From NCBI GenBank assembly GCA_019244185.1, contig JAFATB010000014.1:375587-439586 (forward strand): 64,000 bases of DNA, read 5' to 3'. How positions within the stretch are numbered: position 1 is the stretch's first letter; every line of letters begins with the position of its first letter. The notes beneath the pieces are model-generated. The model was given only the letters and a program-made list of their open reading frames with translations, was not told the origin of the DNA and did not search any database. A program made the position numbers and the translations under genes. The stretch comes from Acidobacteriota bacterium. Its GTDB lineage: Bacteria > Acidobacteriota > Thermoanaerobaculia > Gp7-AA8. Below, piece by piece: positions 5,887 to 62,007 of this stretch.

Positions 5887-7332
5887 ATGCTGAAGCAGAA
5901 AGCGCGGATGGTGGCGAGGATCGTTTACGCGAGCGATCTCGCGCTGACGACGGTCGCCTTCTTCACCGCGTTTTTCCTGCGCGACCTCCTGCTTCCGCGC
6001 CTCGCTCCCGGCCAGTTCCCCACCGGCCTCTTTCCGCTCACCGACTACCTCAAGATCTACCCATTGGTGCTGATCATCTGGTCGGTGCTGCTGTTCACCT
6101 ACGACAGCTATCACTCGCATCGCACCGTGCCGCTGACGCGCGAGGCGCTGACGACGGTGCGCGTCGTCATCTCGGGCAACGTCATCCTGGCCACGCTCGC
6201 GTACCTCCTGCCGCTGCGGCAGCTCTCGCGCTCGTGGTTCGTGCTCTTCGGCGTGCTGGCGGCGACGCTGCTCGTGGCCGAGAAGATCGGCGTGCGCGCG
6301 CTGGCGCGGTGGGTCCGCTCGAAGGGTCTCAACTATCGAACGGTGCTCATCGTCGGCACCGGCCGCCGCGCCACCGACATCGCGCGCATGATCGTCGGCC
6401 ACAAGTACTGGGGCTACAAGATCCTCGGATTCGTCTCCGACGGCCACCATCTGTCGAACGGCTGGACGCGCTACCGCATCTTCGGCAGCGTCCCCGATCT
6501 GCGCCGCATCCTCGAAACGAGCGAGATCCCCGAGCCGATCGACGAAGTCGTCTTCGCCGTCACGCGCAAGAAGCTCGACGAGATGAAGCAGATCTTCCTG
6601 CTCTGCGAGGAGCTCGGCATCCGCACGCGCGTGGCGATGAACATCTTCCACAACCGCGTCGCGCGCGTGGAGCTCGAAGAGCTGGAAGGCGTTCCGTTCC
6701 TCACGTTCACGACCACGCCGTCGAACGAGACGCAGCTCGCCGCGAAGCGCGCGCTCGACATCGCCATCTCGCTGATGCTGCTCGTGCTCACCGGTCCGGT
6801 GATCGCGATCGCTGCTCTCGCGATCCGGCTCTCGTCGCCCGGCTCGATCGTCTTCCGGCAGAAGCGCATCGGTCTCAACGGTCGCAGCTTCACGCTCTAC
6901 AAGTTCCGCACGATGATCGAGGACGCGCACGCGCGCCGCGAAGAAGTCGCGCACCTCAACGCGATGAACGGCCCGGTCTTCAAGGCGAAGGACGACCCGC
7001 GCGTGACGCCGGTCGGGCGTTGGTTACGAAGGTTCTCGCTCGACGAGCTGCCGCAGCTCTGGAACGTGCTCAAAGGCGACATGAGCCTCGTCGGCCCGCG
7101 CCCGCCCATCCCCGAGGAAGTGGCGTCGTATCACCGCTGGCACCGCCGGCGGCTGTCGATGAAGCCGGGACTCACGTGCCTCTGGCAGATCAGCGGCCGC
7201 AACGAGATCGCCGACTTCGATCGCTGGATGCAGCTCGACCTGCAGTACATCGACAACTGGTCGCCGTCGCTCGATCTCAAGATCCTGCTGCGGACCATTC
7301 CCGCGGTGCTCTCCGGAAAAGGCGCGTCATAA
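5887..7332 (+). CDS. Undecaprenyl-phosphate sugar phosphotransferase (polyprenyl glycosylphosphotransferase)
   Basis: A 481-residue WbaP/WcaJ-type initiating transferase: it moves a sugar 1-phosphate from a UDP-sugar to undecaprenyl phosphate in the inner membrane. Four or five N-terminal membrane helices (to about residue 150) are followed by a Rossmann-like CoA-binding-type domain and the catalytic bacterial sugar transferase domain from about residue 284. That domain shows AAKRALDI, FRQKRIGLNG, the KFRTM box near 339, FSLDELPQLWN near 383, SLVGPRPP near 400 and CLWQISGRN near 430. Full length. It defines the cluster as a lipid-carrier glycan pathway (exopolysaccharide or O-antigen). Confidence 0.93.
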   Translation: MLKQKARMVARIVYASDLALTTVAFFTAFFLRDLLLPRLAPGQFPTGLFPLTDYLKIYPLVLIIWSVLLFTYDSYHSHRTVPLTREALTTVRVVISGNVILATLAYLLPLRQLSRSWFVLFGVLAATLLVAEKIGVRALARWVRSKGLNYRTVLIVGTGRRATDIARMIVGHKYWGYKILGFVSDGHHLSNGWTRYRIFGSVPDLRRILETSEIPEPIDEVVFAVTRKKLDEMKQIFLLCEELGIRTRVAMNIFHNRVARVELEELEGVPFLTFTTTPSNETQLAAKRALDIAISLMLLVLTGPVIAIAALAIRLSSPGSIVFRQKRIGLNGRSFTLYKFRTMIEDAHARREEVAHLNAMNGPVFKAKDDPRVTPVGRWLRRFSLDELPQLWNVLKGDMSLVGPRPPIPEEVASYHRWHRRRLSMKPGLTCLWQISGRNEIADFDRWMQLDLQYIDNWSPSLDLKILLRTIPAVLSGKGAS

Positions 7333-7333
7333 T
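7328..7333 (+). promoter_or_regulatory. -10-like box CATAAT, 8 nt before start codon
   Basis: CATAAT overlaps the stop of the sugar transferase gene and ends 8 bases before the ATG of the decarboxylase. There is no Shine-Dalgarno site, so the transcript would be nearly leaderless. I saw no clear -35. Confidence 0.4.
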
Positions 7334-7341
7334 CGCGCCTC

Positions 7342-8727
7342 ATGAAGCTCGATCCAACCTCTGACGAGTTCCGCGCCGCCGCTCACCGCGCGGTCGACTG
7401 GATCGCCGACTACCTCGATCACATCCGCGACTACGACGTGCTCTCGCGCGTGCAGCCGGGTGACATTGAGAAGCAGTTCGCGGCGCAAGCGTCCGAGGAT
7501 GGCAAGCCGTACGACGAGCTGCTGCGCGACTTCGAGACGAAGATCGTTCCCGGCATCACCCACTGGAACCATCCCGCGTTCTTCGCCTACTTCAGCAACA
7601 CCGGCTCGCAAGCCGGCATCCTCGGCGAGCTGCTCTGCGCCGCGCTCAACGGCAACGGCATGCTCTGGAAGACATCGCCGTCGCTGACCGAGCTCGAGAC
7701 GCTGTCCTTGCGCTGGCTGCGCGACGCGCTCGGCCTGCCGAACGATCTCTTCGGGATCATCAACGATACCGCGTCGATCAACGTGTTTTTCGCGCTCGCG
7801 GCGGCCCGCGAAGCGTTGGGTCTCGACATCCGCGGCAAAGGGATGACCGGCCGCGATCTGCCGCCGCTGCGCGTGTACTGCTCGGAGCACGCGCATTCGT
7901 CCGTCGACAAAGCCGCGCTCGCGCTCGGCTTCGGGCAGACCGCGATCGTGCACATCGCCAGCGGTGACGACTTCCGCATGCGTCCCGAAATGCTCGCGGA
8001 AGCGATCGCGCGCGACCGTGCGGCGGGCGCGCTGCCGTGCGCGGTCGTGGCGACGCTCGGCACGACGTCGACGGTCGCCATCGATCCGCTGCCGGAGATC
8101 GCCGCCATCGCGAAGCGCGAGCATTGCTGGCTGCACGTCGACGCCGCGTACGCCGGCTCCGCCGCGATCGTGCCGGAGTTTCAGTGGCTGTGGCGCGGCA
8201 TCGAGCACGCCGACTCGATCGTCGTGAATCCGCACAAGTGGCTCTTCACGCCGATGGACTGCAGCGTCCTCTACACGAAGCGCCCGGACGTGCTGCGGCA
8301 GACGTTCTCGCTCGTGCCGGAGTATCTGAAGACAACCGACACCGCCGAGATCAACTACATGGACTACGGCCTGCAGCTCGGCCGCCGCTTCCGGGCGTTG
8401 AAACTCTGGCTCGTCCTCGAGCACTACGGCCTCGAGCGGATGCGCAACACGCTGCGCGATCACGTGCGCTTCGCCGAGCGCCTCGCGGACGAGCTGCGCA
8501 AACGCAACGACGTCGAACTGCTCGCGCCGCAGTCGTTCAGCGTGGTCGTGTTCCGTCTCAAAGCGGGCGACGACGCGACGATGCAGCTGATGGAACGCAT
8601 GAACGCCACCGGCAAGCTGTTCGTCTCGCACACGAAGATGCGCGGCCAGTACGGGATCCGTGTCGCGATCGGCAACGGTGCGACGGAATGGGAGGACGTC
8701 GCGCAGGTCCTCGCGTTTTTGGGCTGA
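7342..8727 (+). CDS. PLP-dependent group II decarboxylase (aromatic-L-amino-acid decarboxylase-like)
   Basis: 461 residues, the usual length of the DDC/TDC family, which removes the carboxyl group of aromatic amino acids or related substrates using pyridoxal phosphate. The family pattern runs throughout: THWNHPAFFAYF near residue 72, LHVDAAYAG with the cofactor-binding Asp267, and NPHKWLFTPMDCS with the Schiff-base Lys299. Substrate choice (Phe/Tyr/Trp/DOPA) cannot be settled. It begins 9 bases after the sugar transferase but appears to have its own promoter box. It converges on recQ. Confidence 0.92.
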   Translation: MKLDPTSDEFRAAAHRAVDWIADYLDHIRDYDVLSRVQPGDIEKQFAAQASEDGKPYDELLRDFETKIVPGITHWNHPAFFAYFSNTGSQAGILGELLCAALNGNGMLWKTSPSLTELETLSLRWLRDALGLPNDLFGIINDTASINVFFALAAAREALGLDIRGKGMTGRDLPPLRVYCSEHAHSSVDKAALALGFGQTAIVHIASGDDFRMRPEMLAEAIARDRAAGALPCAVVATLGTTSTVAIDPLPEIAAIAKREHCWLHVDAAYAGSAAIVPEFQWLWRGIEHADSIVVNPHKWLFTPMDCSVLYTKRPDVLRQTFSLVPEYLKTTDTAEINYMDYGLQLGRRFRALKLWLVLEHYGLERMRNTLRDHVRFAERLADELRKRNDVELLAPQSFSVVVFRLKAGDDATMQLMERMNATGKLFVSHTKMRGQYGIRVAIGNGATEWEDVAQVLAFLG

Positions 8728-8736
8728 CGCCCCGCG

Positions 8737-10572
8737 CTACGGCGCCGCTTCCGCGTGCGCCGCGATCTGCGCGATCACCGCGTCGCCGAACGCCTCCAGC
8801 TTCGCGTCGCCGATGCCGTAGATGCCGCGCAATTCGTAGCGCGTCGTCGGGCGGGCGCGGGCGAGCTCGCGCAGCGTTTTGTCGCTGAAGATTACATACG
8901 GCGGCACGCCGCGCTCTTCCGCCTCGGAACGGCGCCACGCGCGGAGCACGTTGAAGAGATCCCGATCGTACGGGCCGTCATCCACCGCGGGACGCCGCGC
9001 CGGCGACGAGGACGCCGAGCCGGCGACGCGATCTTTCTTCCGCACCGCCGGCTGCCGCAGCTTCACTTCCGCGTAGCCTTTGAGCACGTCGCGCGCGCGG
9101 CTGCCGAGGCGGAGCGTGGGGTATTCGGCGTTCGTCTGGAACAGGAAATCCTGCGCGATCAGCTGGTAGATCCATTCGCGCACGTCGTGGCGCGTGCAGC
9201 CTTTCAAGAGTCCATACGTCGACAGTTGATCGTGCCCGCGGTCGCGGATCTTTTCCGTGTCTTCGCCGCGGAGGATGCTCACCACGTGCGCGACGCCGAA
9301 CGACTCGCGCACGCGATAGACGCACGACACGATCTTCTGCGCGACCACGAGCGCGTCCTGCACCTCCTCGGTCTCGCCGAGGCAGAGATCGCAGGCGTTG
9401 CAGCGCTCGGCGTCGTAGGACTGGCCGAAGTATTCGACGAGAGCGCGGTGGCGGCACGTCGCGCCGGCGCAGTAGCGGTCGATGTCCTGCAGATGCCGCA
9501 GCGTCGACGCCGCATGCTGCGGATCGGCCGCGGTGTCTCCGAGCATCGACTTCCACGTCATGAAGTCGGCGCCCGAGTAGAGCAGCACGCACTCCGCCTC
9601 TAGACCGTCGCGTCCCGCGCGTCCCGATTCCTGCTGGTAGTGCTCGATCGACTTCGGCATCGCCGTATGCAGCACGAAGCGCACGTTCGAGCGGTCGATG
9701 CCCATTCCGAATGCAACCGTCGCCACGACGAGATCGCACTTTTCATTCGAGAACCTGTCCTGCGCCTCGCGTCGCTCGTCCTGCGAGAGTCCCGCGTGAT
9801 ACGCGACGGCGTCGTGGCCGCGGCGGCGCAACTTCTCGGCGAGCGAGTCGACGTCCCGGCGGCGCATGCAGTAGATGATGCCGGCCTCGCCGCGGTGGCG
9901 CTCGATCACGTCGACGACCTGCTTCGCCTCGTCTTCGCGCGCGAGGACGCGATACGTGAGATTCGGCCGGTCGAAATCGCCGACGAGCTCCAGCGGCTCG
10001 CGCAGGCTGAGCTCGTTCGCGATGTCGCGCCGCACCTCGGGCGTCGCGGTCGCGGTGTACGCGTGCACGGCGGCGCCGGGAAACTCCTCGCGGATCGCGC
10101 GCAACTGCCGGTACTCAGGACGGAAGTCGTGTCCCCAGTGGCTGATGCAGTGCGCCTCGTCGATGGCGAACGTCTTCACGTTGGCGATGCGCAGCAGCTC
10201 GCGGAACTGCGGCGTGGCCAGGCGTTCCGGCGAGACGAAGAGCAGCTTCGCGCGGCCGGCGAGCACGTCGCGCTCGGTCGCGCGGAGCTCGTCGAGCGAC
10301 TGCGAGCTGTTCAGCTGCGCCGCGTGCACGCCGCATTCGCGCAGGCCGTCGACCTGGTCTTTCATCAGCGAGATGAGCGGCGAGACGACGACGGTGACGG
10401 ACTCCTGCAGCAGCGCCGGCGCTTGGTAGCAGAGCGACTTGCCGCCGCCGGTCGGCATGACCACGAGCGCGTCGCGGCCGGACAGCGCGGCCAGCATCGC
10501 TTCCTCCTGTAGAGGTCGCAACGACGAGTAGCCCCAGTGCTTTTGGATGACGTCGAGGAGGCGGGCCTTCAC
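8737..10572 (-). CDS. recQ: ATP-dependent DNA helicase RecQ
   Basis: 611 residues, standard for RecQ, a 3'-5' helicase acting in recombination and replication-fork repair. The order is classic: helicase motif I PTGGGKS with Lys45, DEAH at 138-141, the conserved aromatic-rich loop HWGHDFR, motif VI QQESGRAGRDG, the zinc-binding Cys cluster (YCAGATCRH ... CNACDLC), winged helix, and a C-terminal HRDC domain. The start codon is GTG, with a GATAAT box 8 bases upstream. It diverges from the next gene with only 20 bases between the starts. Confidence 0.97.
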   Translation of the reverse strand: MKARLLDVIQKHWGYSSLRPLQEEAMLAALSGRDALVVMPTGGGKSLCYQAPALLQESVTVVVSPLISLMKDQVDGLRECGVHAAQLNSSQSLDELRATERDVLAGRAKLLFVSPERLATPQFRELLRIANVKTFAIDEAHCISHWGHDFRPEYRQLRAIREEFPGAAVHAYTATATPEVRRDIANELSLREPLELVGDFDRPNLTYRVLAREDEAKQVVDVIERHRGEAGIIYCMRRRDVDSLAEKLRRRGHDAVAYHAGLSQDERREAQDRFSNEKCDLVVATVAFGMGIDRSNVRFVLHTAMPKSIEHYQQESGRAGRDGLEAECVLLYSGADFMTWKSMLGDTAADPQHAASTLRHLQDIDRYCAGATCRHRALVEYFGQSYDAERCNACDLCLGETEEVQDALVVAQKIVSCVYRVRESFGVAHVVSILRGEDTEKIRDRGHDQLSTYGLLKGCTRHDVREWIYQLIAQDFLFQTNAEYPTLRLGSRARDVLKGYAEVKLRQPAVRKKDRVAGSASSSPARRPAVDDGPYDRDLFNVLRAWRRSEAEERGVPPYVIFSDKTLRELARARPTTRYELRGIYGIGDAKLEAFGDAVIAQIAAHAEAAP

Positions 10573-10580
10573 TGGCGACG

Positions 10581-10586
10581 ATTATC
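10581..10586 (-). promoter_or_regulatory. -10-like box GATAAT before recQ (GTG start)
   Basis: Read on the minus strand, GATAAT (5 of 6 to TATAAT) ends 8 bases before the recQ GTG and no ribosome-binding site intervenes. This predicts a leaderless or near-leaderless recQ mRNA starting with GTG. Confidence 0.5.
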
Positions 10587-10592
10587 GCATCT

Positions 10593-11150
10593 GTGCTATT
10601 TGTCGCCGCCGTGCAGACCCTTCTCGCGAACGCGCGCTACACGCGAGCCATCGACGCGGTCGCCGAACTGCTCGCGCGGCTGCGCGTCGACGCGATCTTC
10701 GTCGGCAACATCGCCCGCGCGGCGTGGCTCGGCGGCGAAGTCGAATCCGGCACCATCGACGTCCTCGTGCTGATGGCCGAGCCGCAGAAGAATCAGCTGG
10801 CGATGATGGCGTCGAACCGCGGCTTCCGCGTCGAGCGCGAGGAACTGCAGGCCGCCGACGAGCTCGACCTCGTGCCGATCGGTTTCCGCGACGACGAGGG
10901 CGAGGTGCGCGTGTTCGTGCTGCTCGCCACGAATGCGCTCTACGCGAAGATGGTGACGGCGGGACGCGAGACGATGTTCGGCGAGCGCCTGCTGCGCGTC
11001 CCGGCGCCGGAGGATCTCGCGCTGATGCTGATGATGGCCGAGGATGACGGCACGCTGCGCAGTCTCACGGAGTTGCCGGAGTTCGACCTCGCCGCGTTTC
11101 GCGAACGGCTGACGTCGATCGGATTGGGCGGACGGGTGGCGGCCGAATGA
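10593..11150 (+). CDS. Nucleotidyltransferase-like protein, degenerate
   Basis: A 185-residue cytoplasmic protein whose N-terminal half (VGNIARAAWLGGEVESGTID) resembles the GS-x-AR-x-G...D-x-D core of MNT/AbiEii-type nucleotidyltransferases. Only one acidic residue of the expected DxD is present and the GS is GN, so catalysis is doubtful. The GTG at 10593 is used; a GTG at 10611 is also possible. The stop overlaps the RNase D start as ATGA, indicating co-translation. Function unknown. Confidence 0.6.
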   Translation: MLFVAAVQTLLANARYTRAIDAVAELLARLRVDAIFVGNIARAAWLGGEVESGTIDVLVLMAEPQKNQLAMMASNRGFRVEREELQAADELDLVPIGFRDDEGEVRVFVLLATNALYAKMVTAGRETMFGERLLRVPAPEDLALMLMMAEDDGTLRSLTELPEFDLAAFRERLTSIGLGGRVAAE

Positions 11151-12265: not shown

Positions 12266-12274
12266 CGCGCGCGT

Positions 12275-12280
12275 TACAAT
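12275..12280 (+). promoter_or_regulatory. -10-like box TACAAT before trxB
   Basis: TACAAT ends 9 bases before the trxB ATG. The intervening GC-only bases contain no ribosome-binding site, so the mRNA should have at most a few leader bases. Confidence 0.5.
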
Positions 12281-12289
12281 GCGCGCCGC

Positions 12290-13291: not shown

Positions 13292-13369
13292 GCGGAAACG
13301 CAGCCCCCCGTTCGGCAGGTCGTGAAACGCTTCAGCCCTCGCTCGCACTAATGAGGTGGAGGTGTGAGC

Positions 13370-14912: not shown

Positions 14913-14918
14913 TAGAAT
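14913..14918 (+). promoter_or_regulatory. -10-like box TAGAAT before the dCMP deaminase gene
   Basis: TAGAAT ends 10 bases before the ATG at 14929, with no ribosome-binding site between. The rest of the 267-base intergenic region holds the divergent M23 promoter and nothing else I recognise. Confidence 0.5.
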
Positions 14919-18615: not shown

Positions 18616-18621
18616 ACTATA
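18616..18621 (-). promoter_or_regulatory. -10-like box TATAGT before the LolC/E permease gene
   Basis: On the minus strand TATAGT overlaps the end of the aminotransferase gene and ends 10 bases before the permease ATG, with no ribosome-binding site. It could serve as an internal, near-leaderless promoter. Confidence 0.45.
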
Positions 18622-19777: not shown

Positions 19778-19783
19778 ATTGTA
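19778..19783 (-). promoter_or_regulatory. -10-like box TACAAT that supports a TTG start
   Basis: On the minus strand TACAAT ends 9 bases before the TTG at 19768, the same geometry as trxB and purC. It fits a leaderless transcript initiating on TTG. Confidence 0.45.
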
Positions 19784-20809: not shown

Positions 20810-21409
20810 TCAATCCTGCAGTGGTTTCGCTTTCAGTTTCACCTTCCCGTCGACGGTCTCGACGCGGAAGGCGACGGTGTGGACATGGTACTTGTCGCGC
20901 ACGATCTCGGTCTGCTTCTGCACCATCACGGCGAGCTGTTCGAGCGTGAGGTTCGGCAGCTTGCCGAGCTTGGCGTGCTCGCGCTCGATCGCGTCGAAGA
21001 GCTGGCGGATCTGTTCGCCGTTCGCACCCGGCGTCATCCTTACATACGGATCGGCCGCGCCCGACGTTACGCGCGGCGGCGGCGGCGCGTGCCTCTCGCG
21101 CTCCGGCTCCGGCGCGCTGAGCGCGGCCTGGCGGCGGCGGTAGTCGAGCGGACCTTCCTCGCGCTCGCGCATCTTCCGCGCCCACATCTCGCGGAACTGG
21201 TTGTAGCGCGACAGGACGGTGTTGAAGCGGAAGCGGCGCGTGTTGTCGCGCATCTTCTGCTTGCTCAGCTCGTGGATGTAGGACTCCAGCTGATGCCGCT
21301 CGAAGCTGGGCGGAATCTTGATGATGCCGGTGAAGAACTGGTCGTACTTGTTCTTCAGCTTCCGGATGTCTTCCTCGAGCTTGTCGAGCTCCTCGTCCTG
21401 TTTGATCAC
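20810..21409 (-). CDS. MXAN_5187 C-terminal-domain-like protein
   Basis: 199 residues, strongly helical and charged. The N-terminal coiled coil (LDKLEEDIRKLKNKYDQFFTG) followed by FNTVLSRYNQFREMWARKMREREEG is the pattern I know from MXAN_5187-type proteins of myxobacteria and acidobacteria; a Pro-rich linker and a small alpha/beta end domain (TVAFRVETVDGKVKLKA) follow. Function unknown. The start is GTG. It faces selA across a 28-base gap and heads a two-gene unit with the TPR protein. Confidence 0.72.
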   Translation of the reverse strand: MIKQDEELDKLEEDIRKLKNKYDQFFTGIIKIPPSFERHQLESYIHELSKQKMRDNTRRFRFNTVLSRYNQFREMWARKMREREEGPLDYRRRQAALSAPEPERERHAPPPPRVTSGAADPYVRMTPGANGEQIRQLFDAIEREHAKLGKLPNLTLEQLAVMVQKQTEIVRDKYHVHTVAFRVETVDGKVKLKAKPLQD

Positions 21410-21422: not shown

Positions 21423-21428
21423 TAAACT
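21423..21428 (+). promoter_or_regulatory. -10-like box TAAACT before selA
   Basis: TAAACT ends 9 bases before the selA ATG without a ribosome-binding site. The whole divergent gap is 28 bases, so promoter elements for the opposite gene (TTAGTTTAGT on the minus strand) must overlap it. Confidence 0.5.
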
Positions 21429-23502: not shown

Positions 23503-23508
23503 ATGATA
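23503..23508 (-). promoter_or_regulatory. -10-like box TATCAT before plsC
   Basis: On the minus strand TATCAT ends 6 bases before the plsC ATG, exactly the spacing at which the A of ATG would be the +1 base. Confidence 0.45.
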
Positions 23509-24426: not shown

Positions 24427-24432
24427 AGAGTA
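24427..24432 (-). promoter_or_regulatory. -10-like box TACTCT before the BACON-like gene
   Basis: On the minus strand TACTCT fits TANNNT and ends 10 bases before the ATG at 24416, with no ribosome-binding site. Confidence 0.4.
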
Positions 24433-27436: not shown

Positions 27437-27834
27437 GTCCCATGCGTTCGTTCGACGACACGCCGTTCAATCGCGAGCTCGGCTTCACGCTCGTCGAATA
27501 TGGCGACGGCCGCGCGTCCGTGGCCGCTGGCGTGTCGCCGTGGTTCCTGCAGGAGAACGGCGTCGTGCACGGCGGCGTGCTCGCGGCGCTCGCCGATACG
27601 GCCGGCGTCTACGCGCTGCGCGGCGACGCGCGCTTCAGCGGAGCACTGACCGGGGTCGAGCTCAAGATCAACTTTCTCGAAGCCGCGCGTCCCGACCGCG
27701 GTCCGCTCGTCGCCACCGCGCGCGTCCTCCGCCGCGGCCGCACCCTCGGCATCTGCGAGGCGAATGTGAAGCAACGCGAAATCCTCGTCGCGACGGCGCT
27801 GCTCACGTATTTGTTCCTCGCGCGGCGGCAGTAG
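27433..27834 (+). CDS. PaaI-type hotdog-fold thioesterase
   Basis: 133 residues of the PaaI/YdiI-like acyl-CoA thioesterase group, which hydrolyses aromatic or medium-chain acyl-CoA. The motif QENGVVHGGVLAALADTAG (about residues 38-56), with His-Gly-Gly and the downstream catalytic Asp, is well kept; the rest follows the GVELKINFLEAA pattern. The GTG at 27433 overlaps the DUF2785 stop; an ATG at 27442 is an alternative. Lies between the two AraC paralogs. Confidence 0.88.
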   Translation: MSPMRSFDDTPFNRELGFTLVEYGDGRASVAAGVSPWFLQENGVVHGGVLAALADTAGVYALRGDARFSGALTGVELKINFLEAARPDRGPLVATARVLRRGRTLGICEANVKQREILVATALLTYLFLARRQ

Positions 27835-27837
27835 CAT
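27832..27837 (+). promoter_or_regulatory. -10-like box TAGCAT before the second AraC gene
   Basis: TAGCAT ends 7 bases before the ATG at 27845, which favours that start over the ATG at 27836 lying inside the box. Confidence 0.35.
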
Positions 27838-43862: not shown

Positions 43863-44882
43863 TCAGTTATCGCCCTCGCCATAGATCTCAACGTGGGGAA
43901 CCCCATCCGCGCCGATCCACCCGCGGTACATCCCCTCGGTGTTGAACGTCATCGCGAAATTGCCGCGGGCGTCGAGCACGATCACGCCGCCGTCGCCATC
44001 GACCGCTTTCAACTTGCGGTTGATCACCTCGTTCGCCGCGTCCTTCACCGACAGTCCTTTGTACTTCACCAGCGCCGCGATGTCGTGCGCGACCGTCCAG
44101 CGGATGAAGAACTCGCCGGTGCCGGTGGCCGACACCGCGCACGACTCGTTCTCCGCGTACGTGCCGGCGCCGATGATCGGCGAGTCGCCGACGCGGCCCC
44201 AGCGCTTGTTCGACGTCCCGCCGGTCGACGTGCCCGCGGCGAGGTTGCCGTCGCGGTCGAGTGCCACCGCGCCGACGGTGCCGAACTTCTTGTCCGCCGG
44301 CACCGCGTACTCCGACACCGGCTTGCCCTTCTTCTCAGCGGCCAGCTCGTCCTGCAGTTCCTTCCAGCGCCGCTCCGTCCAGAAGTACTTCGGATCGACG
44401 ATCGTGAGGCCCGCGCTCTTCGCGAACGCCTCCGCGCCGCGGCCGATCAGCATCACGTGCTTGGTCTTCTCCATCACCGCACGCGCGGCGCTGATCGGAT
44501 TTTTGATCGTCGTGACGGCGGCCACCGCGCCCGCCCGCTTCGTCTTTCCCTCCATGATGGAGGCATCCAGCTCGTTCTTTCCTTCGTGCGTGAACACGGC
44601 GCCTTTGCCCGCGTTGAACAGCGGCGAGTCTTCCATGACGCGAATGGTCGCCTCGACCGCATCGAGGCTCGTGCCGCCCTTCGCGAGCACCGCGTGTCCG
44701 GTGCGCAGCGCCTCCGCGAGCGCGTCGCGGTACTGCTTCTCGACCTCGGCGGTCATGTTCTTTTTGAGGATCGTTCCCGCGCCGCCGTGGATGACGAGCA
44801 TCGTGGTTCCTTTCGGCTGGTCTGCGGCGGCGAGGCTCGCGAACACGAATGTTGCAAGGAGAAAGGCCAGTCGCTTGAACAT
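43863..44882 (-). CDS. Exported isoaspartyl peptidase/L-asparaginase (plant-type)
   Basis: 339 residues with a signal peptide (to about residue 20). Ntn-hydrolase: it cleaves itself before the nucleophile Thr202 in KKFGTVGAVALD, and GTSTGG follows as expected. It removes isoaspartyl residues from peptides or deaminates Asn. HGGAG near residue 32 is the oxyanion/substrate loop. The start codon shares bases with the start of the divergent gene (CATG at 44880-44883). Confidence 0.93.
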   Translation of the reverse strand: MFKRLAFLLATFVFASLAAADQPKGTTMLVIHGGAGTILKKNMTAEVEKQYRDALAEALRTGHAVLAKGGTSLDAVEATIRVMEDSPLFNAGKGAVFTHEGKNELDASIMEGKTKRAGAVAAVTTIKNPISAARAVMEKTKHVMLIGRGAEAFAKSAGLTIVDPKYFWTERRWKELQDELAAEKKGKPVSEYAVPADKKFGTVGAVALDRDGNLAAGTSTGGTSNKRWGRVGDSPIIGAGTYAENESCAVSATGTGEFFIRWTVAHDIAALVKYKGLSVKDAANEVINRKLKAVDGDGGVIVLDARGNFAMTFNTEGMYRGWIGADGVPHVEIYGEGDN

Positions 44883-47571
44883 GTTGCGTACGGTATCACT
44901 GCTCTTCGCGCTGCTGCTCGGCCCGACGCTCGCCGCGCAGGGACCGTCCGCGGACTGGCGCACGATCGAGACGCCGCACTTCCGCGTGCACTACCCGAAA
45001 CCGTTCGAAGCGTGGGCGCGCGCGGCGGCGGAACGGCTCGAATCGATCCGCGACGCCGTGTCGCGGGAAGTCGGTTACGCGCCGCGGCAGGTCGTCGACG
45101 TGATCGTCACGAATCCGGAAGCGTCGCCGAACGGCGAGGCCTGGCCGCTGCTCGACACGCCGCGCATGATCTTCTTCGCCGAGCCGCCCGGACCGGACGA
45201 ACAGCTCGGCGCGTACGGCTCGTGGATCGAGATCCTGGCCGTGCACGAGACCGCGCACATCGTGCACATGCTGCGGCCGTCGCGAAATCCGTTCGAGCGA
45301 TTCCTGGAGCACGCCGCGCTGCCGGTCGATCCAATCGTGCTGCACGCGCCGCGCTGGGTGCTCGAAGGCTACGCCACCGTCGTCGAAGGACGCCTCACCG
45401 GTGCGGGACGCCCGAGCAGCACGCTGCGCGCGTTGATTCTGCGGCGCTGGGCCGAAGGAGGACGCCTGCCGTCCTACGCGCAGCTCAACTCCGACCAGCG
45501 ATTCCTCGGCATGTCGATGGCGTACCTCATGGGCTCCGCGTTTCTCGAATGGCTCGAGCAGCGCGGCGGCCCCGACTCGCTGCGGCACCTCTGGGCGCGC
45601 ATGACCGCGCGCGAGCGGCGCTCGTTCGACAGCGCGTTTGCCGGCGTCTTCGGCGATCGTCCCGACCGCTTGTACGGACGCTTCGTCGCGGAGCTCACGG
45701 CCTCCGCGATCGCGATTGACCGTGCGTCGACGCTCGTCGAGGGAACGCTGTGGCAGGAGACCTCGCGCGCGACCGGCGATCCCGCCGTCTCGCCCGACGG
45801 TAAAGAGCTCGCGATCGTCCTGCGGCCGAAGGAAGGTCCGCAGCAGCTCGTGGTGTGGTCGACGGCGGCACCGGACGAGGAAGAGGAAAAGTTTGCGAAG
45901 CGGCTGCGCACGATCCTCGCGAGCGATCCCGAAGACGTCGCACCGGTGCGGACGAAACCGCTCCCGCGCAAAGCAGTCCATACGTTGACCATGCCGGACG
46001 GCGGCGACATCGTCTCGCCGCGCTGGACGCGCGACGGCAAGTCGCTCGTCTTCGCCCATCGCGTGCGCGATCCGCGCGGCGCGCTGCGCTTCGACCTCTA
46101 TCGCTGGGACTTCGACACGCTGACGCGGGTCACGCATCTCGCCGACGTGCGCGAGGCCGATCCGCTCGCGAACGGCACCGCCGTCGCGATCCGCAGCCGG
46201 TTCGGCGCCGTGCAACTCGTGAACGTCGATCTCGCCACCGGCGCCGTGACGCCGCGCACGGAACCGTCGATCGACGTGATCGTCTCGCATCCGCGCGTGA
46301 GTCCCGGCGGCAAAGTCGCGTGGGTCGAACATCGCGGCGGACGCTGGACGCTCGTCGTCGACGGCGCGCCGATCGCGCTGAGCGGCGATGTCGCCTCGCC
46401 CGAATGGATCGATGACGACGCGCTCGTCGTCACCGTGTCGAACGGCGGCTTCGCGGAACTGCATCGCGTCACGCGTGCCGGCGACGACCGCGTCCTCACG
46501 CGCGCGCGCGGCGGCGCCTTCGATCCCGCGCCTATGCCGCCGTCTGCAGGGGACGGGCGCGTCTTCTTCATGTCGCTCGATCCCGATGGCTACGTCGTGC
46601 GCGCCTTGCCTGCGACGACGAACGCCGCGCCCGCGCCGCCCGCGTACGACGCGCTCCTCGTCCCCGCCGTGCCGCCCGCGCCGCCGCGCGTGACGTCGTT
46701 CGCAACGCGGCCGGTCTCCGCGCCGCGCGCGTACGGCATCGGGCGGCAGGAGCTCGGCTGGTTCGTCGGGCAGGACGTCGCGCCGCGGCAGCGCGCCACG
46801 CAGCTCGGCGTGCGGCTCGGCGACGTCGTCGGGCGGCTCGACACGATCGCCGTCGTCGCGCTTGGAACCAGCGATGCCGGCGACAACGACGAGCCGCGCG
46901 GCGCCGCGCTCGTCACCGCGTGGCGCGGCTGGCCGATCGAAATCCGCGCGCACTTCTTCGAGACGAATCGTAAAGACGGCGTCGAGGTGCGCGGCATCTG
47001 GACGCGTGGCGGTCCGCGGTCGCGGCTCACGCTCGAAGGCGGCGCGCTCTCGCGCGAGTTCGCGTTCGCGAGCGCGTCGCTCGTGACGCAGCAGGTGCGC
47101 GGCCTCTTGCGGCTCGAAGAGAGCGAGCGCGTCGATGTCGATGAGAACCATGTCCGCGCGATCGCCGGCGTCGCCGTGCGCAGAGGTGCGATGCGCGTGG
47201 CCGCGCGTTACCAGCACGACAGCGGCGACCTCACCGTCGGCGGTCTCTCGTATTCCGTCTATCCGCGCTCGGTCTCCGCGCATCGCATCATCGATCCCGC
47301 GCTGACGCTGGCGACGCTGATCGGGAACGGCTACGATGGCTGGCGGATCGAATCGACCGTGCCGCTTCTGCCGTTCACCGCGTTCTACCAGCGCCACGAG
47401 CTCGGCGCGACACGTCTCTCGCTGGCGGGACTGGAGTGGACGTTCGCCTCCGATCCGCTGCCGATTCTCAAAGTTCCCGGTCTCGACCTCACGCTCGGCG
47501 CGGCGCGCGTGCTCGACGCTCCGCTGCGCGGCCATACGAACTGGTGGATCGGCATGCGGTGGCGTCCATGA
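44881..47571 (+). CDS. Secreted gluzincin peptidase with TolB-like propeller
   Basis: 896 residues. Signal peptide, then a gluzincin (MA clan) domain with HETAH (His122, Glu123, His126) and third ligand Glu162 in WVLEGYA, so catalysis looks possible. A TolB/WD40-like beta-propeller (about 280-600) follows (PAVSPDGKELAIV, SPRWTRDGKSLVFAH), then a beta-rich C-terminus ending in an aromatic residue run WWIGMRWRP, which could be a barrel. Acidobacteria encode many such proteins. The start codon overlaps the divergent peptidase start; a GGAGAAAGG lies 15-20 bases upstream inside that gene. Confidence 0.85.
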   Translation: MLRTVSLLFALLLGPTLAAQGPSADWRTIETPHFRVHYPKPFEAWARAAAERLESIRDAVSREVGYAPRQVVDVIVTNPEASPNGEAWPLLDTPRMIFFAEPPGPDEQLGAYGSWIEILAVHETAHIVHMLRPSRNPFERFLEHAALPVDPIVLHAPRWVLEGYATVVEGRLTGAGRPSSTLRALILRRWAEGGRLPSYAQLNSDQRFLGMSMAYLMGSAFLEWLEQRGGPDSLRHLWARMTARERRSFDSAFAGVFGDRPDRLYGRFVAELTASAIAIDRASTLVEGTLWQETSRATGDPAVSPDGKELAIVLRPKEGPQQLVVWSTAAPDEEEEKFAKRLRTILASDPEDVAPVRTKPLPRKAVHTLTMPDGGDIVSPRWTRDGKSLVFAHRVRDPRGALRFDLYRWDFDTLTRVTHLADVREADPLANGTAVAIRSRFGAVQLVNVDLATGAVTPRTEPSIDVIVSHPRVSPGGKVAWVEHRGGRWTLVVDGAPIALSGDVASPEWIDDDALVVTVSNGGFAELHRVTRAGDDRVLTRARGGAFDPAPMPPSAGDGRVFFMSLDPDGYVVRALPATTNAAPAPPAYDALLVPAVPPAPPRVTSFATRPVSAPRAYGIGRQELGWFVGQDVAPRQRATQLGVRLGDVVGRLDTIAVVALGTSDAGDNDEPRGAALVTAWRGWPIEIRAHFFETNRKDGVEVRGIWTRGGPRSRLTLEGGALSREFAFASASLVTQQVRGLLRLEESERVDVDENHVRAIAGVAVRRGAMRVAARYQHDSGDLTVGGLSYSVYPRSVSAHRIIDPALTLATLIGNGYDGWRIESTVPLLPFTAFYQRHELGATRLSLAGLEWTFASDPLPILKVPGLDLTLGAARVLDAPLRGHTNWWIGMRWRP
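44890..44895 (-). promoter_or_regulatory. -10-like box TACCGT before the isoaspartyl peptidase gene
   Basis: On the minus strand TACCGT fits TANNNT and ends 7 bases before the ATG at 44882, inside the divergent gluzincin gene. A weak match. Confidence 0.3.
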
Positions 47572-50602: not shown

Positions 50603-50612
50603 AATGTACACT
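50603..50612. promoter_or_regulatory. Overlapping divergent -10 boxes of recO and the SirB1-like gene
   Basis: AATGTACACT contains TACATT on the minus strand (7 bases before recO) and TACACT on the plus strand (9 bases before the SirB1-like start), sharing the central TA. RNA polymerase could not occupy both at once, so the two genes probably compete. Confidence 0.55.
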
Positions 50613-54587: not shown

Positions 54588-54701
54588 GGAATTCACCAGT
54601 AGTGGCGCTTCTACTAAAGCTGTGCTAGGCTGTGCGCCTCCCGGTAAGGTTCAAGGAAGCGTCCAAGGATTCTCCACGGTCCCGAGGCGGCGCCTCGCTC
54701 T

Positions 54702-55586: not shown

Positions 55587-55595
55587 GCGAGCGCG

Positions 55596-55601
55596 ATTGT
55601 A
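55596..55601 (-). promoter_or_regulatory. -10-like box TACAAT before purC
   Basis: On the minus strand TACAAT ends 9 bases before the purC ATG; same geometry as trxB. Confidence 0.5.
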
Positions 55602-55649
55602 GTGGAGCGGCGCGCGTTCGCCACGCGCCGCCCCGAAAGCGAGAGGCTG

Positions 55650-56630: not shown

Positions 56631-56767
56631 GAGTAATTCCTTTCGCGATTCGCTGCCCGCGCTTGTGCAGCAGCGGTGCCGTCGCGCGGCGAGCGCAGCC
56701 GCGTTGCGGCTCAACGGTTTGCGGGCGATGCGCGGCCTGTGAACGAGTGATGGCGGCCTCCGCACGG

Positions 56768-56773
56768 TACACT
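56768..56773 (+). promoter_or_regulatory. -10-like box TACACT before the aminotransferase gene
   Basis: TACACT ends 7 bases before the ATG at 56781, in a 150-base divergent gap that otherwise shows only GC-rich sequence. Confidence 0.5.
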
Positions 56774-56780
56774 TCCGTCC

Positions 56781-58537: not shown

Positions 58538-58549
58538 CGCGCGCCGCCG

Positions 58550-59029
58550 CTACTGCGCCGCCCTGAGGTCCGCGAGGATGTCCTCGGCGTGCTTCTCCGT
58601 GTCGACCTTCTTGTAGATCTTCTTGATCCGTCCGTCCGGGCCGATCCAGAACGTGGTGCGTGCGACGCCCCACACTTTGCGGCCGTACATGTTCTTCTCT
58701 TTCCAGACGCCATACATCTTGGCGATGTCGGCGGTCTCGTCGGAGAGCAGCGGGAAGTTCAGGTTGTACTTGCCGCGGAACTTGTCGTGGCTGGCCAGCG
58801 AGTCGATCGAGACGCCGAGGACGATGGCGTGCTCTTTGGCGAGATCGTGCTCGTGATCGCGGAACGAGCACGCTTCCTTCGTGCAGCCGGGCGTGTCGTC
58901 CTTCGGATAGAAGTAGAGGATCACGTCCTTGCCGCGAAACTCCTTGAGGGTCGTCTCTTTGCCGCGCGTCGACGGCAGGCGGAAGTCGGGAGCCACGTCG
59001 CCGACTTTCGGTTCGTAGAAATCCTGCAT
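58550..59029 (-). CDS. bcp: Thioredoxin-dependent peroxiredoxin (Bcp/PrxQ)
   Basis: 159 residues. PrxQ-type peroxidase that reduces hydrogen and organic peroxides: [19 protein letters not shown] has the peroxidatic Cys49 and the resolving Cys54 five residues on. The Thr/Arg active-site residues are present (TPGC; R near 128 in VARTTF). Last gene of the psd-pssA-USG operon, with a GGAA-type site 8 bases upstream of the ATG; trxB in the window could supply its reductant. Confidence 0.95.
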
Positions 59030-59040
59030 GCGTTTCCTCT

Positions 59041-60042
59041 TCAGTTCGTGCTGCCGGTGCCGAACAGCACCTTCTCGGCGATGAGCACCGCGTTGAGCGC
59101 GGAGCTGCGGCGCAGATTATCGCAGACCGCCCACACCCAGAACCCGCCGCGAACGGTCGGATCGCGCCGCACTTCCGCGACCAGCACCTCGTCCTTGCCC
59201 GCGGCGTCGATCGTGCCGAACTGCTGATCGCCCTCCGCAAAAACGATGGCCGGATTCGCCTGCAGCGCCTCGGCGATGCGCGGCTCGTCGAGCTCTTCGT
59301 GCGTCCGCAGGAACAGCGAGAACGTATGGCCGTGAAAGATCGTCCCCTGCGTGATCAGCAGCGCGAGCTCGGTGCGCGGATCGGTGAGCCCGCGCACCTG
59401 CGAGACGATGAACTCCTCGTTGTGCTCGAGCGCGGGATAGAGATTGAACGCGAGCTGGCGGTCGAAGATCTCTTTCGGAACCGCGTGGATGTTGAGGACG
59501 CTGATGGTCTGCTGCGCGAGCTCCTCGACGCCGGCCTGCTCGAACTCCGACGCCGGCTGCACGACCGTGGCGGTGCAGAGGTCGACCGGCGCGAGCGTGC
59601 GAATCTGCTGAAGGATGAGCGCGATCGGAATGGCGACGGGATGCGGCGAGACGAGCACGCGATCGCCCTCACCGAGCGACTCGAGGTTGATGCCGGCGAT
59701 GGCGAGCTTGCCGTCTTCGGCGGTCGTCGGCTGCGAGAGATCGACGGCGATGAAGTTGTCTTCCTCCGCGCGCGCGATCCACTCGCGATTCTGTTCGGCG
59801 CGGCCGCAGAAGAAGACGAGGTCGAGCGAGTCGAGCTCCGCGGCGGAGACGGGCGAGACGACGGCGGGCTCGTCGCCCATCTCCGTCAGCGCGCCGGCGG
59901 TTTGTCCGCTGGCGTCGAGCAGTGCGATGTGGTCGTAGGGAAACGCGCGCTCGCGCAGGATGGTCTTGATCTCGTTGCCGACGAGCGTGAGCGGATTGAC
60001 GATGCCCAGGCGAATGCCGGAGCTGGATTTCGGGTGCGCCAT
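59041..60042 (-). CDS. USG-1-like protein, catalytically dead aspartate-semialdehyde dehydrogenase homolog
   Basis: 333 residues with Asd/USG-1 similarity throughout: [32 protein letters not shown] and FDRQLAFNL near residue 193, the last being a USG-1 hallmark. The Asd active site is lost: where functional enzymes have N-C-S/T this one reads SPHPVAIPI (132-140), no Cys, and the GATGxVG nucleotide loop reads NPLTLVG. It should not make aspartate semialdehyde. Function unknown. It lies in the phospholipid operon between pssA and bcp. Confidence 0.85.
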
Positions 60043-60056
60043 GCGGCGCCCTTGTA

Positions 60057-60866
60057 TCACGCGAGGCCGGTTTCGATCGCCGGCTCCGGCGCGATCGGCG
60101 GGCGGCGGTTCGGGAACGCGATCGACCAGAGCTTCGCCAACGGTCCGGAGACGAGATAGCCGACCGAGCCGGCGAACCAGAACTCGCGCGGCCACCAGTA
60201 GCCGAGCGCGCCGATCGCCGCGAGCGCGAGGAAGTACATCAGCGACCGCTCCTTCTGCAGCGCGAGCCCTTTCTGGCTGCGGTAGCGGATCGGCGAGACC
60301 ATCGCGAACGCGGTGGCGATCGTCACGAGCATGACGATCGTCGCGAAGCGGCGGTCCGTCACCGGCACCGGCGCGTAGAAGATCATCGACGCGAGCGTCA
60401 GCGCGCCCGCGGGACTCGGCAGTCCGACGAAGTAGCGATAGTCGGTCTTGCCGGTCTGCACGTTGAAGCGCGCCAGGCGCAGCGACACCGCCGCCAGGAA
60501 GACGAAGGCGATGCCGCCGCCGAGCTTCTCGAAGACGTGCAGCGCCCACGCGTAGACGAGCACCGCCGGCGCGGCGCCGAAGGTGACGATGTCGGCGAGC
60601 GAGTCGTACTCCTTGCCGAACTCGCTGGTCGCGCCGAGCGAGCGCGCCACGAGTCCATCGAACGTGTCGAAGACGGCGGCGATGAGAAGCGAGAGGCACG
60701 CGGTCTCGAGAAAGTCGACGACGGCGGCGGTGTGCCCGAGGACGTCGGCTTCCATCGCGCGCGTGGCGTAGATGATTGCGCGGAAGCCGAAGAAGATGTT
60801 GAGGAGGGTGAGCGACGTCGGGATGACGTAGATGCCGCGGCGAAAGTTCGGCCGCATCGGCTTCAC
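60057..60866 (-). CDS. pssA: CDP-diacylglycerol-serine O-phosphatidyltransferase
   Basis: 269 residues, an integral membrane CDP-alcohol phosphatidyltransferase that forms phosphatidylserine. The motif D70-G-x2-A-R-x8-G-x3-D-x3-D (FDTFDGLVARSLGATSEFGKEYD) is intact, with five to six membrane helices. It overlaps psd as ATGA; together they make phosphatidylethanolamine. Confidence 0.94.
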   Translation of the reverse strand: MKPMRPNFRRGIYVIPTSLTLLNIFFGFRAIIYATRAMEADVLGHTAAVVDFLETACLSLLIAAVFDTFDGLVARSLGATSEFGKEYDSLADIVTFGAAPAVLVYAWALHVFEKLGGGIAFVFLAAVSLRLARFNVQTGKTDYRYFVGLPSPAGALTLASMIFYAPVPVTDRRFATIVMLVTIATAFAMVSPIRYRSQKGLALQKERSLMYFLALAAIGALGYWWPREFWFAGSVGYLVSGPLAKLWSIAFPNRRPPIAPEPAIETGLA

Positions 60867-61501
60867 TCCGGGATCTCCGCGATGATGGTCAGCGCGACTT
60901 TCGGTTTGTCGCCGACCTTCACCCGGATCTCCGCGTTTGGCGGGAGGAACACGTCGACGCGCGAGCCGAACTTGATCATGCCCACGCGTTCGCCGCGCGC
61001 GACCTCGTCGCCTTCTTTTTTGTCGAAGACGATGCGCCGCGCGAGGAGCCCCGCGATCTGCTTGAACGCCAGCGTCGCGCCGCGGCCGTCGGTCATCACG
61101 ATGAGGTTCTGCTCGTTGTCGGTCGACGACTTGTGCGACATCGCCGGGATCTTCTTGCCCGCGCTGTAGCGGTAATGAACGATGCGGCCCGTGATCGGCG
61201 CGCGATTCACATGCACGTCGAAAACGGACATAAAGATGCTGACCTGTTTCGTGAGGCCGGGCCAGATCTCGCCGTCGGGGATGTCTTTGATCAGGACGAC
61301 CGTGCCGTCGGCGGGGGAGAGCACGTCGACGTGCCGCTCGGAGCCGGCGCGGTGCGGGTCACGGAAGAAGTTGATGAGGAACGCCGCGAGGAGTCCCAGG
61401 ACGATCGCAGCGACGTACCACTGCGTCAGCAGCGCCAGCGCCGCCAGGATGATTACCGGGATGATGAAGATCCATCCCTCGGGCGCAAATCGCAACCGCA
61501 T
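60863..61501 (-). CDS. psd: Phosphatidylserine decarboxylase proenzyme
   Basis: 212 residues, the short archaeal/Bacillus-like class. It self-cleaves at the GS of KFGSRVD (179-180) to create a pyruvoyl group and turns phosphatidylserine into phosphatidylethanolamine. N-terminal membrane helices (about 10-45), then LSPADGTVV and HVNRAPI. First gene of the psd-pssA-USG-bcp operon, with TAACAT 7 bases upstream. Confidence 0.94.
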   Translation of the reverse strand: MRLRFAPEGWIFIIPVIILAALALLTQWYVAAIVLGLLAAFLINFFRDPHRAGSERHVDVLSPADGTVVLIKDIPDGEIWPGLTKQVSIFMSVFDVHVNRAPITGRIVHYRYSAGKKIPAMSHKSSTDNEQNLIVMTDGRGATLAFKQIAGLLARRIVFDKKEGDEVARGERVGMIKFGSRVDVFLPPNAEIRVKVGDKPKVALTIIAEIPE

Positions 61502-61508
61502 CGCGCGG

Positions 61509-61514
61509 ATGTTA
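61509..61514 (-). promoter_or_regulatory. -10-like box TAACAT before psd
   Basis: On the minus strand TAACAT ends 7 bases before the psd ATG, with no ribosome-binding site. Confidence 0.4.
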
Positions 61515-61556
61515 TGCAAAGCGAGTTCCGTTGGGAAGCGGAATGCCTTGAAACAC

Positions 61557-61586
61557 GACGAGCCGCGAGAAGAATCGCGGCTCGTC
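61557..61586 (-). terminator. Putative terminator of the DUF465 gene
   Basis: A 12-bp perfect stem (GACGAGCCGCGA, 61557-61568, with its complement 61575-61586) and 6-base loop lie about 60 bases past the DUF465 stop. On the minus strand only GTGTTTC follows, so termination may be partial; the hairpin also sits upstream of the psd promoter box. Confidence 0.6.
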
Positions 61587-61647
61587 TGGCGGATGTCAGG
61601 TTGTGACTGCGGATGTGATGGCGGGGCCGGCGCGTGCCGCGCGGGTC

Positions 61648-61887
61648 TTACGCGACCGCGTGCTGGCCGGCTTCGTACGAGCGCATGCGCTCGGCCATCT
61701 GGTCCTTCAGGTGGAGCTTCCGCTTCTTCAAATGTTTCTCTTCGATCTCTTCGTCGTTCGTGATGTCGCTCTTGGTCGTCAGCTCGTGCAGCCGGTGCTC
61801 GCATTGGCGATGCTCTTCGGCCCACTGCCGGAACTCGGGATCCTGATCGGCGAGAATGTTTTGAATGTCAGCGGTCTGATTCGACAT
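61648..61887 (-). CDS. Small DUF465 (YdcH-like) protein
   Basis: 79 residues, highly charged and helical, with the pattern DPEFRQWAEEHRQCEHRLHEL...DEEIEEKHLKKRKLHLKDQM, which matches DUF465/YdcH proteins (small coiled-coil hairpins of unknown role). The ATG at 61887 has a strong GGAGGAG 7 bases upstream and a real leader (TAAAAT at 61927-61932), unlike the leaderless genes nearby. Confidence 0.88.
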   Translation of the reverse strand: MSNQTADIQNILADQDPEFRQWAEEHRQCEHRLHELTTKSDITNDEEIEEKHLKKRKLHLKDQMAERMRSYEAGQHAVA

Positions 61888-61926
61888 CGATGGTCTCCTC
61901 CTTCGAAGTTCCAATCCGCGAGCAGA

Positions 61927-61932
61927 ATTTTA
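61927..61932 (-). promoter_or_regulatory. -10-like box TAAAAT before the DUF465 gene
   Basis: On the minus strand TAAAAT lies 39 bases before the ATG, giving a leader of about 32 bases that holds GGAGGAG. Confidence 0.5.
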
Positions 61933-62001
61933 GCACTCCGCTTGCCAACCGGCGGCGGTTTCGGGCGCGCGTTCAAGTTGTGATGCGTCAGTGACTTGCC
62001 C

Positions 62002-62007
62002 TATGAT
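62002..62007 (+). promoter_or_regulatory. -10-like box TATGAT before the GT39 gene
   Basis: TATGAT ends 8 bases before the ATG at 62016. TTGTGA lies 18 bases upstream of it (61978-61983) as a possible -35. Confidence 0.5.

What the first reader, a model, noticed from the sequence alone, without database searches (positions are those of the whole stretch)
7328..62007. Widespread leaderless transcription: -10 boxes ending 6-10 nt before start codons
About fifteen likely transcription-unit heads have a -10-like hexamer just before the start codon and no Shine-Dalgarno site: decarboxylase CATAAT (8 nt), recQ GATAAT (8), trxB TACAAT (9), dCMP deaminase TAGAAT (10), LolC TATAGT (10), aminotransferase TACAAT (9), selA TAAACT (9), plsC TATCAT (6), BACON TACTCT (10), AraC TAGCAT (7), recO TACATT (7), SirB1 TACACT (9), purC TACAAT (9), second aminotransferase TACACT (7), psd TAACAT (7), GT39 TATGAT (8). 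A box ending 6 nt before +1 puts the transcript start on or next to the start codon. If the genome is about two-thirds GC, a chance TANNNT in this 5-base range is expected in only about 2 percent of genes. Leaderless genes with such boxes are established in Deinococcus and actinobacteria; I do not know of a description for this lineage. Other genes here have strong Shine-Dalgarno sites and leaders, so two initiation classes coexist.
Basis: partly seen in the sequence, partly recalled or inferred. Interest (0 to 1): 0.75.

Follow-up and report, generated by a model that had tools for sequence, protein, structure and literature searches.

The report
Leaderless genes, some sharing one promoter box
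In the part of this bacterial genome examined, about one gene in seven has a TANNNT promoter-like box 6 to 10 bases before its start codon, rarely together with a ribosome-binding site, so these genes likely make messages with no leader; some head-to-head genes only 20 to 31 bases apart have two such boxes that overlap and would drive both genes from one short sequence.

Summary
The 16 boxes named are at the stated spacings. In 1.21 Mb (23%) of the genome, TANNNT lies 6-10 nt before 111 of 622 operon-head starts, against 10-25 in equally wide windows upstream; permuted patterns show no such peak. Of 5249 intergenic decoy start codons, 81 have a box. There is a wall: 3 boxes at spacer 5, 28 at spacer 6. 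Box and Shine-Dalgarno exclude each other (3 of 111 against 136 of 511). For seven genes, 56 of 95 orthologs keep a box at spacer 5-11. Leaderless transcription from a -10-only promoter is the best reading; there are no RNA data. As a class it is known: Zheng 2011 predicted leaderless genes with TANNNT in 3 of 3 Acidobacteria, the window's probable phylum. Less expected: divergent genes crowd at 20-31 bp gaps; 10 of 19 such pairs carry boxes for both genes (0.42 expected by shuffling), 7 of the 10 in one geometry, ANNNTANNNT, where both boxes share a single TA. The window's recO/SirB1-like pair is one. My searches listed no description of one -10 core serving two leaderless genes.

The parts
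7328..7333 (+). CATAAT box, 8 nt before decarboxylase ATG (7342); not TANNNT
   Evidence: Pyridoxal_deC
10581..10586 (-). GATAAT box, 8 nt before recQ GTG (10572); not TANNNT here, but TANNNT in 9 of 12 orthologs
   Evidence: RecQ domains
10573..10592 (.). 20-bp gap between recQ (-) and a divergent ORF as called at 10593-11150 (+); GATTATC core reads as a box-like hexamer on both strands; the + start is uncertain
12275..12280 (+). TACAAT box, 9 nt before trxB-like ATG (12290); the syntenic named MAG locus L040 has TAGAAT at 9 nt
14913..14918 (+). TAGAAT box, 10 nt before dCMP deaminase ATG (14929)
18616..18621 (-).
19778..19783 (-). TACAAT box, 9 nt before aminotransferase TTG (19768)
21423..21428 (+). 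TAAACT box, 9 nt before selA ATG (21438); the same TAAACTA reads TAGTTT on the other strand, 14 nt before the divergent ORF 20810-21409; starts uncertain
23503..23508 (-). TATCAT box, 6 nt before plsC-like acyltransferase ATG (23496)
24427..24432 (-).
27832..27837 (+).
50603..50608 (-). TACATT box, 7 nt before recO ATG (50595)
50607..50612 (+). TACACT box, 9 nt before SirB1-like (Transglut_core2) ATG (50622)
50603..50612 (.). AATGTACACT: shared ANNNTANNNT core of the divergent recO / SirB1-like pair; both boxes use the same TA (50607-50608); gap 26 bp
55596..55601 (-). TACAAT box, 9 nt before purC ATG (55586)
56768..56773 (+). TACACT box, 7 nt before second aminotransferase ATG (56781)
61509..61514 (-). 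TAACAT box, 7 nt before psd ATG (61501)
62002..62007 (+).
44890..44895 (-).
   Evidence: sequence; Asparaginase_2

Best explanation
The boxes at -7 to -16 are likely sigma-70-type -10 elements that start the transcript on or within a few bases of the start codon, so that about one gene in seven here would be translated from a leaderless or nearly leaderless mRNA while many operon-internal genes have Shine-Dalgarno sites. Shown: the position-specific, TANNNT-specific enrichment, the wall at spacer 6, the near-exclusion with Shine-Dalgarno, the maintenance in many orthologs. Inferred: that RNA polymerase uses the boxes and that ribosomes start at the 5' end. Because no clear -35 signal is visible and no leader is needed, a partly palindromic box would have no built-in direction: in head-to-head pairs 20-31 bp apart, the two boxes often overlap as ANNNTANNNT and would let polymerase load either way, making two leaderless messages from one core of about 10 bp (inferred).
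For: Peak: spacer 0-14 counts 3,0,0,0,0,3,28,26,22,28,8,11,9,5,4 in 622 heads; no 3-base periodicity, so not an in-frame stop-codon artefact. Unambiguous starts: 30 of 98 have a box. Decoys: 81 of 5249. ATNNNT, TTNNNA, AANNNT, TANNNA: 26, 25, 20, 14 of 622, about their upstream levels; TANNNT 111 against 10-25. SD core in 3 of 111 boxed and 136 of 511 unboxed heads, Fisher p 4e-10. Orthologs, G000 left out: recO 11/16, recQ 9/12, HAD 10/15, moxR 10/14, MFS 8/12, rsmA 4/15, SirB1-like 4/11 with a box at spacer 5-11 and few boxes elsewhere in 50 nt. Related genomes: boxed heads 14/47, 5/53, 8/57, 8/54, 6/54, 4/26 above their upstream windows in six 100-kb samples; f7 genome over 500 kb: fraction 0.109 of 247. 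Divergent pairs: 10 of 19 at 20-31 bp with boxes for both genes, 7 of 10 at offset +4; a scan that ignores gene calls gives 10 TANNNT hits (9 sites), 7 at +4, against 1, 3, 0, 0 for ATNNNT, TTNNNA, AANNNT, TANNNA. Precedents: M. tuberculosis has TANNNT and no -35 consensus; E. coli bidirectional promoters favour TSS distances 18, 10 and 23 bp; offset +4 corresponds to 23 bp by my geometry.
Against: No 5' ends mapped. 39 of 393 operon-internal genes also have a box, which may be internal promoters or wrong operon calls. 375 of 622 heads have neither box nor SD core. 5 of 16 recO, 11 of 15 rsmA and 7 of 11 SirB1-like orthologs lack a box at 5-11. Two of eight 100-kb samples show no excess (G080, 2 of 47) or a weak one (G109, 7 of 44 against upstream 3, 5, 0, 3). 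Control GANNNT gave 21 hits, 14 at offset -1, so self-overlapping geometry is not rare for GC-containing patterns; three of the seven +4 hits are not called divergent pairs. Shared cores need fewer fixed bases than separate ones, so overlap is partly favoured by chance once both genes are leaderless. In recO loci L130, L131, L136 the symmetric core is kept although no SirB1-like gene was found in the fetched flank. In the f7 genome 2 of 47 divergent pairs lie 20-29 bp apart.
Confidence: 0.86

Rival explanations
1. The signal is translational or structural: an AT-rich, weakly folded stretch before the start codon helps ribosomes on leadered mRNAs, and no promoter is involved.
For: High-GC genome; 375 of 622 heads have neither TANNNT box nor SD core, so some other aid to initiation may exist.
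Against: Permuted patterns of the same composition show no comparable peak; the wall at spacer 6 fits a transcript that must include the start codon; the enriched hexamers are -10-like; boxes appear on both strands in compact divergent pairs.
Confidence: 0.06
2. The boxes are real -10 elements, but many mRNAs keep short leaders of a few bases and initiation is a short-leader mode rather than strictly leaderless.
For: Spacers 7-14 are common besides 6; they would give leaders of 1-8 nt if the start lay exactly 7 nt after the box.
Against: The box-to-TSS distance varies by a few bases (one search says so for E. coli), so spacers 6-9 are compatible with +1 on the start codon.
Confidence: 0.3
3. 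The compact divergent pairs are ordinary: each gene has its own leaderless promoter and overlap is simply what fits in 20-31 bp.
For: 27 of 38 sides in these 19 pairs have a box, so both-sided pairs are about as many as independence predicts (9.6 by hand; 10 seen).
Against: Offset +4 in 7 of 10 while other offsets that would fit are rare; an ANNNTANNNT core recurs in 8 of 16 recO orthologs while flanks differ (counted by eye).
Confidence: 0.35
4. Artefact of start calling: starts were placed next to AT-rich, non-coding-like DNA.
For: The caller is simple: 30 of 45 E. coli starts exact.
Against: No peak in E. coli with the same caller; the effect is larger in unambiguous starts (30 of 98); homology-placed starts show it too.
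Confidence: 0.02

Closest known systems
TA-led leaderless genes in bacteria (Zheng et al. 2011, PMC3160421; passages seen)
   Same: TANNNT about 12 bp upstream of the start counted from the first T, little information between TA and T in high-GC groups, coexistence with SD-led genes; Acidobacteria 3 of 3 genomes, 13.3% (9.7, 19.4). Here 150 of 1015 genes, 14.8%, chance matches included.
   Different: The passages seen do not name the three Acidobacteria; 'divergent' was found 0 times in the main text (the listing counts 'divergent transcription' once).
Leaderless transcriptome of Mycobacterium tuberculosis (Cortes et al. 2013, PMC3898074; passages seen)
   Same: TANNNT -10, no -35 consensus. 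A figure legend calls closely juxtaposed divergent promoters common and shows prpD and its divergent regulator with TSSs at start codons, so a divergent pair of leaderless genes has a precedent.
   Different: Measured TSSs there, none here; the passages seen do not describe one -10 core shared by two leaderless genes.
Bidirectional promoters with symmetric -10 elements (Middlemiss 2023, PMC10268837, part 1 of 3 read; Warman 2026, PMC12825309, passages; the 2021 paper I asked for is not held)
   Same: One symmetric -10 region, TSSs most often 18 bp apart, 10 and 23 also common; 24% of those in E. coli lie between divergent genes and make two mRNAs. Offsets -1 and +4 here correspond to 18 and 23 bp by my geometry.
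   Different: 'Leaderless', 'untranslated' and 'start codon' occur 0 times in the main text of PMC12825309. Here both products would be leaderless mRNAs and core plus spacers fill the whole gap.

Membership tests
Leaderless (TA-led) bacterial genes | TANNNT-like -10 at a fixed short distance from the start codon | tested here: met
Leaderless (TA-led) bacterial genes | No Shine-Dalgarno site in the same genes | tested here: met
   3 of 111 boxed heads have an SD core
Leaderless (TA-led) bacterial genes | Mapped 5' end on or next to the start codon | not testable with these tools
   no RNA data
Leaderless (TA-led) bacterial genes | Signal maintained in orthologs | tested here: met
   56 of 95 orthologs of seven genes; weak for rsmA (4/15) and SirB1-like (4/11)
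Bidirectional symmetric -10 promoters | -10 elements on both strands overlapping in one of the known geometries | tested here: met
   of 10 two-sided pairs at 20-31 bp, 7 at offset +4 and 2 with offset -1 among their offsets
Bidirectional symmetric -10 promoters | Two divergent TSSs from one core | not testable with these tools
   no RNA data
Promoters with a -35 element | TTGACA-like hexamer 16-18 bp upstream of the box | tested here: inconclusive
   4-of-6 matches: 7 of 111 at spacer 18, but also 7 at 26; no TTGAC enrichment

The most novel reading that the evidence does not exclude
A two-gene promoter stripped to its minimum: a 10-bp ANNNTANNNT core, flanked by about 6-13 bp on each side, is the entire DNA between two head-to-head genes; polymerase loads in either direction on the one shared TA and makes two leaderless mRNAs. 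This is a recurrent, evolutionarily maintained gene arrangement that leaderless translation makes possible.
Probability: 0.5. Interest if true: 0.66.

Novelty: new variant of a known kind. Interest (0 to 1): 0.5.

Why it matters
If right, it gives a start-site rule for gene annotation in this group, where callers that expect SD sites could misplace starts. The shared cores would be natural tests of how promoter direction is set when neither a -35 element nor a leader is present, and of how two genes split one polymerase-loading site. A lower limit of about 20 bp on divergent gaps could be a signature of leaderless initiation readable from DNA alone in uncultured lineages.

Tried and rejected
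Target-site duplication idea: in relatives some divergent pairs are separated by long palindromes with a box left on each side, which suggested insertion at the shared TA with TA duplication. Rejected as a rule: TA lies near both boundaries in 1 of 42 hairpins of family loci and 0 of 35 in G000. -35 search: no clear element. 16S rRNA anti-SD: no SSU match in this assembly, but the same search rang in only 9 of 14 control genomes, so its absence is weak; not tested further. trxB as a survey gene over the 80 loci: 32 of 80 were printed, most too distant and with uncertain starts; only L040 was used. Lineage: inferred from L040, a MAG labelled Thermoanaerobaculia, 80% identical to the window over 1009 aligned bases and 70% over a further 1610; not a formal placement. 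Considered and rejected: in-frame stop-codon artefact (no 3-base periodicity). PMC4117774 and PMC5648196 were looked at for a shared leaderless divergent core; the passages seen do not have one.
Full report
What was checked. The window is G000:C4:375587-439586 of a 5.30-Mb, 26-contig genome, 68% GC in the window. The 16 boxes of the finding were found at the stated distances. I wrote a gene caller that chooses starts by coding score and start-codon type only, and applied it to 1,207,265 bases of this genome, 23%.

Is it more than chance. Among 622 gene starts not closely behind a co-directional gene, TANNNT counts by distance to the start codon (0-14 nt) are 3,0,0,0,0,3,28,26,22,28,8,11,9,5,4; the level 25-79 nt upstream is 3.1 per position. 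111 of 622 have a box at 6-10 nt, against 25, 20, 11, 13 and 10 in five equally wide upstream windows; ATNNNT, TTNNNA, AANNNT and TANNNA give 26, 25, 20 and 14, about their upstream levels. ATG/GTG codons in intergenic DNA that are not called starts: 81 of 5249. Starts with no alternative nearby: 30 of 98. Over all genes: 150 of 1015. The same procedure on 200 kb of E. coli K-12 (fetched) shows no peak. The wall between spacer 5 and 6 is what a -10 element would give if the transcript has to include the start codon.

Two classes. Among heads, 3 of 111 boxed and 136 of 511 unboxed starts have an SD core (Fisher p 4e-10); 149 of 393 closely spaced downstream genes have an SD core and 39 of 393 a box. 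375 of 622 heads have neither; some will be miscalled starts or boxes such as CATAAT and GATAAT that TANNNT misses.

Orthologs. With starts placed by homology, recO, recQ, HAD, moxR, MFS, rsmA and SirB1-like orthologs in the same family carry TANNNT at spacer 5-11 in 11/16, 9/12, 10/15, 10/14, 8/12, 4/15 and 4/11 cases. G000 itself was left out. Orthologs without a match, with an alignment that began after residue 20, without a start codon nearby or with less than 60 nt upstream were dropped: SirB1-like 11 used of 16, moxR 14 of 15, MFS 12 of 15; for recQ I gave the of the relatives' loci, the 12 with the best scores. The rest of the upstream DNA has few boxes and differs between genomes. A named relative, L040 (MAG labelled Thermoanaerobaculia), is collinear around trxB and has TAGAAT where the window has TACAAT, both 9 nt before the start. 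HAD, MFS, moxR, rsmA are names I gave from the sequences by recall; no family search was run on them. In eight 100-kb samples of related genomes, boxed heads are 14/47, 5/53, 8/57, 8/54, 2/47, 6/54, 4/26 and 7/44; the 2/47 (G080) is no excess over upstream windows and the 7/44 (G109) a weak one.

Shared boxes. Divergent gene gaps in G000 (164 pairs) number 2, 2, 17, 11, 15 in the bins 0-9, 10-19, 20-29, 30-39, 40-49. Of 19 pairs at 20-31 bp, 10 have a box for both genes at spacers 5-14 (shuffled mean 0.42, maximum 3 in 300 rounds), 7 a box for one, 2 none; in 7 of the 10 the boxes lie 4 bp apart as ANNNTANNNT and share one TA. A scan that ignores gene calls gives 10 hits at 9 sites, 7 at this offset; three of those seven are not called divergent pairs and may lie in coding DNA; four permuted patterns give 1, 3, 0 and 0, but GANNNT gives 21, 14 of them at offset -1. 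In E. coli 0 of 27 called divergent pairs lie at 15-31 bp; in an f7 genome 2 of 47 lie at 20-29 bp, one with boxes for both genes, so how general the crowding is remains open. In the window, recO/SirB1-like (gap 26) is the clear case; recQ (gap 20) and selA (gap 28) are possible cases whose partner starts are uncertain.

Conservation of pairs. Of 17 family loci, 12 have recO and a divergent SirB1-like gene; start codons giving gaps of 17-26 bp exist in 8 of the 12. An ANNNTANNNT core before recO is seen in 8 of 16 relatives (by eye), three of them without a SirB1-like gene in the fetched flank. moxR/rsmA is compact (21-41 bp) in 6 of 15 loci that hold both genes and MFS/HAD (27-32 bp) in 4 of 10, G000 included in both; the others are separated. 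Of 19 separated loci in the three pairs I folded 14 (not L129, L248, L257-L259): 13 keep a TANNNT at 5-14 nt from the left gene, 7 from the right, 6 from both; predicted RNA folds run from -34 to -133 kcal/mol, most as one long hairpin, without a shuffle control.

Prior knowledge. Zheng 2011 predicted leaderless genes in 3 of 3 Acidobacteria and gives TANNNT at about 12 bp (passages). Cortes 2013 measured TANNNT without a -35 consensus and leaderless mRNAs in M. tuberculosis, including a divergent pair with TSSs at start codons (passages). Symmetric -10 promoters with TSSs 18, 10 or 23 bp apart are known in E. coli (passages, part 1 of 3). lysG/lysE of M. tuberculosis has overlapping divergent promoters in a 108-bp gap and one leaderless transcript (passages). 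Searches for leaderless genes sharing one divergent core (open-licence PMC papers only; titles and abstract starts of the listed rows seen) showed none that describes it; a dRNA-seq search for Acidobacteria found 0 papers. That Deinococcus and actinobacteria are rich in such genes agrees.

Verdict. The finding is real and its reading is well supported by DNA evidence; as a phenomenon it extends a known class. The compact TA-sharing divergent pairs are the part that I would pass on.

Noticed in passing
L123, L125, L127, L246, L250-L252, L256, L265, L267, L268, L271, L273, L274 (gaps of divergent pairs); in G000 for example L002:14736-14858, L009:10738-10816: Long palindromes, many built of short tandem units (for example ACTGAGG or GAACGCA), sit in DNA of this family, in several cases inside divergent promoters that are compact in relatives; unit sequences differ between genomes. 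Origin unknown.
   Followed up: partly
G000 L006:17991-18107, L009:19757-19886, L024:6469-6620, L195:8825-8954, L204:2348-2500: A dispersed inverted repeat with ends GGAGCGCCTCCGGC recurs in G000, in four of these five places directly after ACGA; looks like a small mobile hairpin family.
   Followed up: no
window 43863-44882 (-) and 44881-47571 (+): The asparaginase-family gene and its divergent neighbour overlap at their start codons by 2 bases as called; the asparaginase box would lie inside the neighbour's reading frame.
   Followed up: no
G000 whole assembly: No 16S rRNA match although the assembly is rated 98.92% complete; the same search rang in 9 of 14 control genomes, so the absence is weak.
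   Followed up: no
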